Below are positions 1-64,000 of a stretch of 64,000 nucleotides of DNA, in pieces. Each line of letters opens with the position of its first letter. The stretch's first letter is position 1. Source of the DNA: Rhea pennata (taxonomy: Eukaryota; Chordata; Aves; Rheiformes; Rheidae); NCBI RefSeq assembly GCF_028389875.1, contig NW_026907681.1:1736001-1800000 (forward strand), read 5' to 3'. The translations under genes were made by a program, and so were the position numbers. The notes beneath the pieces were generated by a model. The model was given only the letters and a program-made list of their open reading frames with translations. It ran no database searches and was not told where the DNA came from.

Positions 1-366
1 GCATTGCAACGGAGCAGTAGTTTGCTAGAGTCCAGGAGACACCTTAATGAGGTTTCTGCTGAAGCCCTGGAGATCTCTCTAGGCCAAGAGTGGCCTCCTG
101 ACCACTCAGGAGTGGCATCTGTGCAGATATGTGGCAGTGAGCTCATCTTCCCCATTTCTGCTAATTCGGAGCTGGCTTATGTAATTCGGGTTAAAGCAGA
201 ATGCAGTCTTAAGCCAACTGATAACTCTTTACACGCTGGGATGTTTGTGTGCAGAAATATACCTTTTGCATCTTCCTGCTGATTTCAACCTTTCCTTGTT
301 TCCCGTTGTACGTGTTAACTGCTGTATTAAATGTGACTGGGATTGATTTGTCTTTCTCCTCAACAG
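1..366. other. Non-coding start of window (intron of POLE copy A)
   Basis: No recognisable exon lies here. The POLE exon that should precede the first one seen (it follows the conserved stretch ending MDCLR in other vertebrates) is not found, so the window either starts inside an intron or that exon is lost. The last bases before 367 form a normal acceptor (CAACAG). Confidence 0.5.
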
Positions 367-1091
367 ACTCTGGCCACCTGTTCGGTGTCTGATGCAGTTG
401 CTACCTATTACATGTATATGAAGTATGTGCACCCTTTCATTTTCGCGTTGTGCACCATCCTTCCCATGGAGCCTGATGAGGTGAGTGCATGCCTGAAACA
501 ATTTCTTTTCTGGGCAAAGAGCTGCATCCTTCCTGCAACAGTGACACATTGGCAATAGAACTGATTTCTACAGTTTGGATAGTTTTACACAAGGAAAGGA
601 GGGAAAGTAGTCTCCAAATGCGCTTCCTTTCTGCAGTACAGCAGTCATAGCTGTTTTTCCATAGACCAGTTATGGGTAGCCTAAGTGAAGGAGTTGGTTT
701 TGTTTCCTTACTGTGCTCCTTGCCTTGGGCTTCAATACTACCTGAATAAACACATCATGTTGGGCACCAAATCAGACATTTAAGTTCAATGATGCAGTGA
801 TAAGGCCAGCCTAATTCCAGCAGCACCCTTTACAGCTCTTCTTTCTAAGTCCAGTTTTTGATGTCTGTCTTTTTACAGGTGTTAAGAAAAGTTTCTAGGA
901 CACTGTGTGAGGCATTGCTGATGGTTCAGGCCTATCCCGCCAACATCATCTTCCGCAACAAGCAGGAGCAGGAGTTCAACAAACTTACAGATGATGGCCA
1001 TGTGCTGGACTCGGAGATGTATGTAGGAGGCCACGTGGAAGCTCTGTAATCTGAGTTTTTTCGCAGTGACATCCCTTGCTGCTTTAAAATG
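367..1091 (+). pseudogene. POLE: POLE copy A exons: end of exonuclease domain and linker
   Basis: The exons are 367-480 and 879-1091. The first carries exonuclease motif III ([10 protein letters not shown]), but the residue just before it, Tyr in other vertebrates, is Cys here. The second encodes the stretch ending in GGHVEAL and is then cut by TAA at 1047-1049, where other POLE proteins have Glu; the remaining codons (FRSDIP) still align. Two glycines usual near its start have become Val and Arg. Both exons have normal splice sites (GTGAGT at 481, ACAG before 879, GTAAGG at 1092), so the decay here is by point mutation. Confidence 0.9.
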
Positions 1092-2331
1092 GTAAGGACA
1101 CAATCAAGGTGTTGCAACGGAGGCTTTAAAATGGTAATGCAATCATGCTCTTCTTTCTGGAGAACATGGCAGTAGGGAATAACCCTCCAACTGGAATTAC
1201 CATCCTCTGTTCTTTTGGGGGATACCCAATAGCAATACTTATTATAAAACTTGGATACCTAATTTATGGCTTGAGTGCATGAACCTGCTTAGAGTTTAGG
1301 TGGGAAGGGTTGGAGAAGTTGCTCTTCATGACCTCAGGCTGGCTATTGGGTAAAGACAGTGTTACAGCAAGGAGAGTGGTTCATTGTTGTGTGGGTTTGT
1401 TTATTGGTTGGTTGAAGGGTTTTTTTTTGGGGGGGGGGGAGGGTTGGTTTTCTTTGAGCCAGTGGTTGTTGGCAGAGATGACTCTGTTTTTGTCTCATCA
1501 GGATTATATCTTTGTCCTTCTCCCACTCAAGCCAAGCTTCTTTTGCCCTCTTCATTTGGCCTCTTTTACCTGTTTCTGATTACTACTACTGTCTGAATTG
1601 TAAGTTTTAGAGGCAACTTCTCTCTCTGCTGTGTGATACACCACACCTCAGCGCTGCTTATTTTAGTGGCCTTAATCTCGTAAATGATCTTAAGGGAACG
1701 TGCACTGTGAATTTAGAAGGATCTTAAATCTAACTCCTTGGCCCCTTAGAGCAGTGAGATGTGTGAGCAGCTGACTACTGGGTCAGCCCCGCCTCATAAG
1801 TGTTGCCCTGTGGAACATACATGCAATCATCTCTTCTTGTTAGCTGCCCTATATAGCCTCCTTTGCAGGAGAACTCCAAGGGCCGGGGAGCAGCCACCAT
1901 CTCTTCTCTGCTTTGTGTTTTGCCCTAGTGCCAGTGGTGTAGACTTTTGTGAGTTGTAGAGTTCTTAGCAGAAAGCCACCGTCCTTCAGTTCTAGAGAGC
2001 TCAAGTTGGCTATGGAGGTCAGGCCAGCTAATTGGCCAACATTATCTGCCTGCTCACATCGGAGCTGATCAGTGAACGAAGGGGCATTTCAAGATGCCAT
2101 TCAGCTGACCTGTTTCAGCCATCTGCCCTTCAGATGAGATGAATTGCTCTCTACCCATACTGAGACATGCTCTGCTAAGTAGTGAGCCCGTTTTCAAATA
2201 TCCCCGAAGTTACGCTGGAGCATGGATAATCTTGCAGAAGCTGTCACCCCCTGCCCCCCTTCCCTGGGCGGTGTGCGAGGATGGGTGTCGTGCCTAGAAG
2301 AGGTCTCAGTATCATTCCTGTATCCTTGCAG

Positions 2332-61312: not shown

Positions 61313-61714
61313 GCACCCTTTCTTTTCCTCTCTGTGCTAGGCAGGCTGTTGGGTTAGAATATGGCCCTGTGCCCACTACAACGGTTTGGTCTTATCCTGT
61401 CCTTTTACCTGCTATCCAGGACAGTTCTCAAACTCCCAATGACAGCCACCAGCAGACTGTATAAACACAGTTAGTCGTTCAGGCTAGTGTGGGCAAGACG
61501 TAACTTCTGTACATAATGGCACACAACGGAGTACCGAGTAGAAGCAGCACAACCAAAGATGGGGGTGCTAGTCCTTTCCTAGTAAGATGTAACTCATGAT
61601 AGCAGTGCACAGAGATGGAAAAGGGACAGTATTCAAATACATCAACTGTAGGCATTTTATACAAATTTAACAGATAATGATGCAGTTATACGGTACAGAC
61701 GCAGCATTCGGTAC

Positions 61715-63695
61715 CTCAGACAATCCATGTGGATGCACTGCGGGGCTTTGTACTCTCCCTGGCTGCCCTTCTGAAATCCAATCTCCTGATACATATTAAT
61801 TCCATGAGCTGCTGCTCTTGCTTCCACAAAAGGCCTGAGGAGAGAGACAATGCAGAAGAGAAGAAACAAAGCAGTCCCTTTCCTCCACCCCATCCCCACC
61901 CCAAGGGTTTCAGAACTGCTTTCTTGTAAGCTACTTAATGAGGAATTTTTCTTGTGAATTCTCCTTTGCTCCAGACCTTACCTGTGAGAGCTGGCCACAG
62001 GGAAAACTCCCTGTAGGGCAGAGCTACTGCAAGAAGGAAGCTGCTTGCTTACATCCTATACCAGGAGGCAGAACATTATGATCGAGTTTCCCTCGCTCCC
62101 CAAAGGCTTGGCTGCTCTGGTCTCCCTATTGTTCTGCAGTTCTCTTTTGACACTTTGCCTGTTCTCCAGTTACTGAGGTCATCAGTGTACAAACATTGCC
62201 AAATCAACAACGATCTAGAAGTAGCTCAGCAATCCCAGGACCAACTGATGAGACTCTATAGAAGTTCGTATTTCAAAGCCAATAAACATAGCTCTGCTCA
62301 GGGAAAAAAAAAAAAAAAAAAGTTCTGAATTCCACCACCCCCTCTTCGACAGTCCTCTGCAGGCTGGCAATCCAAGACTCAGCCCAGCACTCCAGATAAA
62401 GAGCACATAATCAGGATGTAAACAAGTTCCCAAACTGGCTGGATAGTCTGCATAGATAAGAACGCATGTGGCCGCTATGTGACCTCCAGACAAAGGACAT
62501 ACAGGCTGGTACCCAATCTCACCTCATGGCCTAGACAACATTTCCTTTTAGAAACCAGGTTAGTTTTCATTCCTGATCTTACCAGTCAAAGAAGTCTCCA
62601 TCGTATGTGACAATGATAGTAGGTTTGGCCTCCTGGACATGTTCAAACCGCCTCTGCATTAAATGAGCCTAGTATGCAACAGAGGATTAAAAAAAAAGAA
62701 CTCAAAACAAAAAACATCTCCCCCACAAACACAAACACTCAGCAAATTCACCTCCTGCAGGCAGGCACTGGATATAATACTATTGATGCAGTCCTTCTCC
62801 TCTGCTCTTGACCTAGCTAGAACCCGATCTGCCTCATCATCACACCATGAAATGAAAGCATCACCAGCACCGTGACTGTCCGCTGTGCTCCCCAAAGATA
62901 CACTCTATTGGGTGATAAGCTCTCTTTGGCCTACAAGAGACCAAGGCAGATAAAAAGCAGCCTGATTTCCCAAGTAGAACCTACTTACCTCATCTGGTTC
63001 ATTAGACACAGAATGGACCCTCACATTCCGGCTTGGGAGTAAATTCAAAGTCCTCAGTATCCTCACAGACAATCTCCTTGTTTGTGATCAGATAGCCCTA
63101 GAGAGTTGACAAAGGAAGAGTTACTGAGGACTCAGATCCCTGCTACACCAGGGACAGGTTCCTGAACAACCGGAACACACTGCCTAAAGGATGAAATAGT
63201 CTTCCATCGATGCGATAATCCTTGCACAGCTTGATAGGTAGAGCTTTTGTCAAGTGGGAACGGCTCTTTGGAGGTCACCTTCTGAACAACTGCTTAAAAT
63301 CAACTAAGGGTGCCAAAAGGGAGACAACTTAAGGACTATACTCTCCAAATTACTACTGCCCCTCAAAGGGGCACCAGTAGCCTTAGCTGGGTTCTCCAAC
63401 ATACAAAACGAGGAAATCCTTATGCATCATTCAGACTAGACTTCAATTTTATTTCCACAGCCATTACATATAGACCAAGCAACTAGCAACAAAGCAAGCC
63501 AGGGACCAGACCGCCAAAGGTGACATGCTCGTTTGCTGTCTAGCATTTTGCTCCAAAGCATGAAGAAAAGAACTGTTGTTCCATTACCTGCCCATCAACC
63601 ATGTAGGAGATCATCATGATCCGGTCTGTCTCTGCATCAGGAAACTTCAAAGGGAGTTTGGTAGTTTCAATGTCAAAGGCGAAAACAACCGGATC
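61715..63695 (-). pseudogene. POLE: POLE copy B exons: proofreading exonuclease motifs I and II
   Basis: Exon 63695-63588 carries motif I intact ([18 protein letters not shown]). Exon 63097-62989 is 109 bases, where 111 are expected; two bases are missing in its CVFNEP-equivalent stretch. Exon 62668-62583 carries motif II, with VTYDGDFFDW in place of the usual VTYNGDFFDW, and a Trp replaced by Arg upstream. Exon 61834-61715 ([20 protein letters not shown]) is open. The next exons of other vertebrates are not found before 60757. The intron between 61714 and 60758 therefore spans the deletion of roughly 1000 residues, including the whole polymerase active site. Confidence 0.9.
62304..62321. repeat. 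Poly-A tract in POLE copy B intron
   Basis: About 18 consecutive A bases. Confidence 0.95.
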
Positions 63696-64000
63696 CTGAA
63701 TATGACCAAATACATTAAACTCAAATCAGCTTTAGAGTATGATTTAACGAGCAGTTCTCATTAGATTAACAACTACTTTACCTAAGTAGGTTTATGCACA
63801 TCTCAGACCCAGCAGGCTTGACTGTAGGAGACAAGGTAGCAACAGTGGTACCCACTGATAACCAAACAGCAAAATTCATTAACAGGAGAGAACGGAATAA
63901 CAAAAGCTTCTCTTTAATGCAACAACCCCCTTCGAGAAAGAGAGTCATCAGGATTGACAGCACGTGAGGAAACATTGCGCAGGCAAAAAGCACTTATTAC
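63696..64000. other. Non-coding end of window (intron of POLE copy B)
   Basis: An intron upstream of the exon at 63695-63588. Earlier POLE exons, if present, lie beyond the window. No feature was recognised. Confidence 0.6.

What the first reader, a model, noticed from the sequence alone, without database searches (positions are those of the whole stretch)
1..64000. Mosaic of broken gene copies from two unrelated ancestral regions
POLE and P2RX2 are neighbours in other vertebrates (human 12q24). NUF2, LRRC52 and ADCY10 map to human 1q23-q24 but are not adjacent there. All five occur here within 64 kb, every one partial or carrying stops, interspersed with a young provirus and CR1. All keep introns, so they are DNA-level copies, not retrocopies. 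This is the pattern expected of a degenerating accessory or non-recombining chromosome. In a songbird the germline-restricted chromosome is a specific candidate; a W or dot chromosome is an alternative.
Basis: partly seen in the sequence, partly recalled or inferred. Interest (0 to 1): 0.82.

Follow-up and report, generated by a model that had tools for sequence, protein, structure and literature searches.

The report
Chromosome-end array of broken gene copies
The window is a slice of a long repeated array, near chromosome ends in at least some places, in what is probably a non-songbird bird; fragments of two other chromosomes were joined at a retrovirus-derived repeat and multiplied, and the broken genes are by-products whose originals lie elsewhere.

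Summary
In detail: all five genes are present as intron-bearing, damaged copies, with a provirus among them. The host genome is held (window = C144:1736001-1800000 of a 1.27-Gb assembly), so the interpretation could be tested.

The window is part of a large array on several contigs. Parents lie elsewhere: P2RX2-POLE on C17 (15.25-15.28 Mb), and NUF2-ADCY10-LRRC52 within about 28 kb of C8 (29.68-29.71 Mb), so these three are neighbours here. A composite unit of about 55 kb recurs, with local variants, on C144, C18, C138, C147 and C149; other contigs carry subsets. Of eight array-side contig ends read, three end in telomere repeats.

The LRRC52-side edge of the C8 part runs into an ERV LTR in 19 of 26 places; the other 7 are the C8 parent and six edges that adjoin another C8-type copy. 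In the two seams read across (window, C138) the far flank is POLE exon-1 DNA. The C8 part is permuted, as expected of a head-to-tail duplicate or a circle of about 29 kb.

A songbird germline-restricted chromosome is not supported: CFTR lies on an unsplit 217-Mb chromosome. W linkage has no support but is not excluded. I file it as a new example of subtelomeric duplicon expansion.

The parts
364..12184 (+). POLE copy A, first block (aa 453-1263), stops in several exons
12361..17969 (+). POLE copy A, second block (aa 1647-2250); aa 1264-1646 missing
   Evidence: inverted duplicate of 54847-59280 at 94-95%
18162..18168 (.). 7-bp overlap where the inverted POLE block meets a direct P2RX2-region block (read as a microhomology joint)
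18162..20552 (+). P2RX2-region fragment (exon aa 74-98 at 19958-20032), direct duplicate of 45195-46948
21987..23776 (+). ADCY10 fragment, four exon matches (aa 1057-1251); parent C8:29691250-29692405
25085..29982 (+). NUF2 fragment (aa 1-203) with a stop in block 28873-28953; exon aa 204-223 deleted in this copy; parent on C8 (L025)
31383..33300 (.). interval that must hold the permutation joint: NUF2 tail side next to LRRC52 tail side (head-to-head on C8)
   Evidence: inferred from positions
33340..37129 (-). LRRC52 fragment (aa 211-272 and 1-97); about 608 bp present between them on C8 are missing here
37633..37635 (.). seam: end of C8-derived DNA, start of LTR
37635..43002 (+). gammaretrovirus-like provirus; LTRs 37635-38271 and 42371-43002
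43003..43756 (+). CpG-rich piece with POLE exon 1 (43499-43642), start of the C17-type DNA
43757..43810 (+). 54-bp extra LTR 3' end, identical to that of the 5' LTR
44744..51659 (+). P2RX2 copy (aa 18-380), damaged; parent at C17:15254988-15256025
54647..60760 (-). POLE copy B, 3' block (aa 1430-2284, with aa 1768-1886 missing)
60822..63695 (-). POLE copy B, 5' block (aa 268-433); aa 434-1429 missing; aligns without break to the 7 sampled copies that lack exons aa 193-267

Best explanation
The window is part of an array of large composite segmental duplications that is subtelomeric on at least three contigs. Shown: (1) a P2RX2-POLE segment like that of C17, already missing POLE exons aa 193-267, is present in many copies on several contigs. 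(2) A C8 segment of about 29 kb (NUF2-ADCY10-LRRC52), in the permuted order expected of a head-to-tail duplication or a circle, is joined to it. (3) The LRRC52-side edge of the C8 part runs into an ERV LTR in 19 of 26 places; in the two read across, the far flank is POLE exon-1 DNA, and in the window there is no target-site duplication. (4) The composite unit, about 55 kb, recurs with variants on C144, C18, C138, C147 and C149. Inferred: recombination between ERV copies made the seam; unequal crossing-over, gene conversion and exchange between chromosome ends then multiplied and spread the unit; local inversions and deletions made the mosaic seen here. The genes are most likely non-functional passengers.
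For: Own-genome searches (the tool calls repeat counts lower bounds; parents included): POLE exon at 57 places (71 rows, 13 of them a second exon and 1 on C1; 150 of 155 candidates scored), NUF2 25, LRRC52 26, P2RX2 35, ADCY10 24 at 89-100% (40 of 66 scored). Order and spacing: on C138, P2RX2 to POLE 26.8 kb, to NUF2 9.8, to LRRC52 6.3, to the next P2RX2 12.4. ADCY10 was predicted on C8 between NUF2 and LRRC52 (note) and found there. Seam: 19 matches run through the host|LTR border, 7 stop at base 633. C138 holds one LTR between the same two flanks. Telomere repeats at array-side ends of C138, C139 and C147. All 7 other POLE copies sampled lack exons aa 193-267; 20 of 21 NUF2 copies have a stop in the blocks scored. 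NUF2 copies are 2.2-3.2% from the parent and 0.07-2.3% from each other.
Against: Five of the eight array-side ends read (C8, C18, C144, C146, C149) show no telomere repeat, so the chromosome-end position is shown for three contigs only. The far flank of the seam was read in 2 of 19 cases. C8's last 1.6 Mb has POLE and P2RX2 copies but no NUF2 or LRRC52 match. The C21 copies do not fit one age: POLE about 96%, ADCY10 90% and NUF2 83-88% like the window. The C8 parent has no LTR at the seam, so the ERV pair behind the proposed recombination was not found. No read depth or Hi-C was at hand.
Confidence: 0.8

Rival explanations
1. A germline-restricted chromosome of a songbird.
For: Multi-copy, broken, rearranged gene copies with paralogues on ordinary chromosomes are typical of songbird GRCs (PMC10387091 passages; PMC6884545 passages).
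Against: CFTR lies at 27.1 Mb of a 216.9-Mb contig, so chromosome 1 is unsplit; that songbirds have it split is recalled. Units are also on C18 (15.1 Mb), and POLE-P2RX2 copies on C8. None of the five gene names occurs in the main texts of the four GRC or W papers searched.
Confidence: 0.03
2. C144 and the other unplaced contigs are W-chromosome DNA that collected and amplified autosomal fragments.
For: Songbird W chromosomes can gain genes by transposition (PMC7692361 passages), and W chromosomes are repeat-rich (recalled). Many units are on unplaced contigs.
Against: Units are also on C18, and related copies on C8, C21 and C3. Three array contigs have a telomere end, more than one W would supply. 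No W copy of CHD1 was seen; this does not separate a male from an unassembled or little-differentiated W.
Confidence: 0.1
3. The units spread as extrachromosomal circles that reinserted at chromosome ends, rather than by unequal crossing-over between ends.
For: The C8 segment is permuted (tail-to-tail in units, head-to-head on C8), and four doublets repeat at 29.2-29.4 kb (positions), close to 15.7 kb of unit plus the 13.1-kb C8 spacer.
Against: A plain head-to-tail duplication gives the same joint. Subfamilies mixed across contigs are also expected of exchange between ends.
Confidence: 0.25
4. Assembly artefact: false joins of repeats.
For: Repeats this similar are hard to assemble, and no read data were at hand.
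Against: The C8-edge|LTR border and the gene order recur on five contigs with different private lesions, and copies differ by 0.07-2.3%.
Confidence: 0.04

Closest known systems
Great-ape subterminal caps with expanded segmental-duplication spacers (PMC12154684; passages read)
   Same: Duplicated segments of about 30 kb multiplied at the ends of non-homologous chromosomes, with evidence of exchange between ends.
   Different: There the spacers are interspersed in a short satellite; here the duplicons themselves form the repeated unit, made from two chromosomes with an LTR at the seam, and the host is probably a bird.
Songbird germline-restricted chromosome (PMC6884545, PMC10387091; passages read)
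   Same: Amplified, fragmented copies of genes from several chromosomes.
   Different: The host karyotype is not that of a songbird, and copies are assembled onto ordinary chromosomes.
Human macrosatellites and subtelomeric duplicon blocks (recalled)
   Same: Large tandem units near chromosome ends carrying gene fragments.
   Different: Unit of about 55 kb, composite of two loci; the relation is by analogy only.

Membership tests
Subtelomeric segmental-duplication array | Many near-identical large copies on several chromosomes | tested here: met
Subtelomeric segmental-duplication array | Copies next to telomere repeats on at least some chromosomes | tested here: met
   C138, C139 and C147; distances about 37 kb, 0.1 Mb and 0.44 Mb
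Subtelomeric segmental-duplication array | All arrays lie at chromosome ends | tested here: inconclusive
   No telomere repeat in the end stretches read of C8, C18, C144, C146 and C149; C18 starts inside the array
Subtelomeric segmental-duplication array | Intact parents elsewhere | tested here: inconclusive
   Parents placed for all five genes. POLE exons aa 169-369 are open in L003; the NUF2 parent is open over aa 67-223 and has an exon the window copy lacks. Whole parent genes were not read
Subtelomeric segmental-duplication array | Exchange between non-homologous ends | tested here: inconclusive
   NUF2 tree, rooted on the parent, mixes contigs; several nodes have low support
Songbird germline-restricted chromosome | Host is a songbird | tested here: not met
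   Unsplit 217-Mb chromosome with CFTR; the rule on the 1/1A split is recalled
Songbird germline-restricted chromosome | Absent from somatic cells | not testable with these tools
   No read data
W chromosome | W copies of Z genes on the same contigs | tested here: inconclusive
   CHD1-like domain: three matches, none on array contigs; only one gene tried
Processed retrocopies | Introns absent | tested here: not met
   Exon matches separated by intervening DNA

The most novel reading that the evidence does not exclude
An ERV-seamed composite of two chromosomal segments has become a self-spreading chromosome-end element in this genome, moving between telomeres in part as circles of about 29 kb or more, so that captured genes are carried and destroyed as passengers.
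Probability: 0.2. Interest if true: 0.75.

Novelty: new member of a known kind. Interest (0 to 1): 0.5.

Why it matters
Great-ape chromosome ends show that gene-sized duplications can be multiplied and swapped between telomeres. A second case, probably in a bird, with both parent loci still in the genome, an ERV at the seam whose LTRs can be dated, and copies of graded divergence would let the order of events (copy, break, join, amplify) be tested step by step. It also warns that clusters of broken genes in such assemblies need not mean W or germline-restricted DNA.

Tried and rejected
Germline-restricted chromosome and W readings: see rivals. Retrocopies: rejected (introns). Known RNA families and tRNAs: none in the window at the thresholds used. 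Pfam on seven further long frames: no family. Selection on NUF2 copies: 3-9 replacement and 2-4 silent codon differences from the parent over four exon blocks in 21 copies, against a mutational ratio of 3.4; no clear sign of constraint, but too few sites to be firm.

Species: C180 (16,749 b) looks mitochondrial by a COX2-like stretch (L042, read by eye; recalled). A guess at a rhea from that length was dropped, because PMC7720580 (passages) reports duplicated regions that make rhea mitogenomes longer; a search for the length found no paper. RB_A as a second chromosome-1 marker did not complete, and the right-hand seam was not counted genome-wide.

In print: six searches bear on this. They listed 20 of 357 papers, 30 of 72, 14 of 14, 15 of 144, 5 of 6 (on apes) and 7 of 7. 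None of the titles listed reports such an array in a bird; papers beyond the lists were not seen. Passages, not whole texts, were also seen of PMC13365828, PMC12954441 and PMC9974502; the last has no occurrence of 'pole'.
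Full report
What is in the window. Five host genes occur as damaged copies with introns. The LRRC52 piece matched LRR proteins in general and the ADCY10 piece nothing, so those names rest on the probes. The window holds two long POLE copies in opposite orientation, 94-95% alike where they overlap, two P2RX2 pieces, and one provirus. A 7-bp overlap marks the joint between inverted POLE and direct P2RX2 blocks at 18162-18168.

Where it lies. The window is C144:1736001-1800000 of a 1.269-Gb, 180-contig assembly. 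C144 is 2.44 Mb long.

Parents. POLE: L003 (C17:15282802-15285915) has open exons for aa 169-369, including the two exons (aa 193-267) that all 7 other copies sampled lack. P2RX2: C17:15254988, + strand, tail to tail with POLE. NUF2: L025 (C8:29682182-29687965), with an exon aa 204-223 that the window copy has lost. LRRC52: C8:29705964-29710228. ADCY10: C8:29691250-29692405, between the two, as predicted beforehand. So three of the five genes form one neighbourhood here. Parent genes were not read in full; for LRRC52, P2RX2 and ADCY10 the parent is the most diverged full-length match in the expected place, and its exons were not read.

The array. Combining hits gives a recurring order: P2RX2+, POLE-, NUF2+, LRRC52-, then P2RX2+ again, about 55 kb per unit on C138, with variants of about 84 kb on C18 that hold two NUF2-LRRC52 subunits. 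C144 shows the same order in stretches, broken by inversions and losses. C139 carries POLE, P2RX2 and ADCY10; C146 and the end of C8 carry POLE and P2RX2; C21 carries POLE, NUF2 and ADCY10; C3 and C162 gave POLE only. In the window the spacing from P2RX2 to POLE is shorter because POLE copy B has lost aa 434-1429, and that from LRRC52 to P2RX2 is longer because a full provirus is present.

Chromosome ends. C138 ends in TTAGGG repeats about 37 kb beyond its last P2RX2 match. C139 starts and C147 ends in telomere repeats, with matches about 0.1 and 0.44 Mb away. C18's hits occupy its first 0.54 Mb and C8's POLE copies its last 1.6 Mb, but no telomere repeat was seen at the array-side ends of C8, C18, C144, C146 and C149. 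C144 starts, and C149 ends, in what looks by eye like the same satellite.

The seam. A query of 633 b beside LRRC52 plus the start of the LTR matched through the host|LTR border in 19 places and stopped at 633 in 7. The 7 are the C8 parent and six copies whose LRRC52 edge faces another NUF2 or ADCY10 copy (positions); one of these (L045) and the parent (L044) were read and continue in C8 spacer. The far flank of the LTR was read in two of the 19: in the window it follows a full provirus, in C138 a single LTR, and in both it is the same POLE exon-1 DNA. No target-site duplication was seen in the window. LTRs also lie about 0.3 kb from the outer side of 8 ADCY10 copies, in the opposite orientation (40 of 351 candidates scored). 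That ERV recombination made the seam is an inference.

The permuted C8 piece. On C8, NUF2 and LRRC52 are head to head; in the units they are tail to tail. Four doublets repeat at 29.2-29.4 kb (positions), close to 15.7 kb of unit plus the 13.1-kb C8 spacer. A head-to-tail duplication or a circle both give this. The joint itself was not compared base by base.

Ages. Eight POLE copies differ from the parent at 5.5-6.5% of sites, 21 NUF2 copies at 2.2-3.2%, and the window's two LTRs at 7 of 627 compared sites. So the POLE part seems older than the C8 part. I give no years, because the species and its rate are unknown. The C21 copies break this order and are unexplained.

State of the genes. Twenty of 21 NUF2 copies carry a stop in the blocks scored. 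Of the same 21 copies, 9 share a 150-bp deletion that removes an exon, 11 run through that stretch without it (one of them matched from part way only), and 1 gave no match, so lesions are distributed across units in a mixed way. Stops in POLE copies differ.

Which chromosome kind. CFTR on a 217-Mb contig argues against a songbird. The CHD1-like domain search gives no support for W but does not exclude it.

Verdict.

Noticed in passing
G000:C142, 0.35-3.84 Mb: At least 16 places resembling the ADCY10 stretch at only 72-73% identity, on both strands: a separate, apparently much older ADCY10-like amplification.
   Followed up: no
G000:C21:3755437 and 3909696-3925340: POLE copy about 96% like the window on the same contig as NUF2 (83-88%) and ADCY10 (90%) copies, with ADCY10 downstream of NUF2 as in the permuted units; the ages do not agree.
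   Followed up: partly
G000:C144 start (L040) and C149 end (L050): A satellite with a period of about 340 b by eye, apparently shared by both contigs at the end away from the array.
   Followed up: no
window 43757-43810: A 54-bp LTR end identical to that of the 5' LTR, placed after POLE exon 1; origin unexplained.
   Followed up: partly
G000:C1:216713566 and C19:45477: LTR matches of the same family near an end of two further contigs.
   Followed up: no
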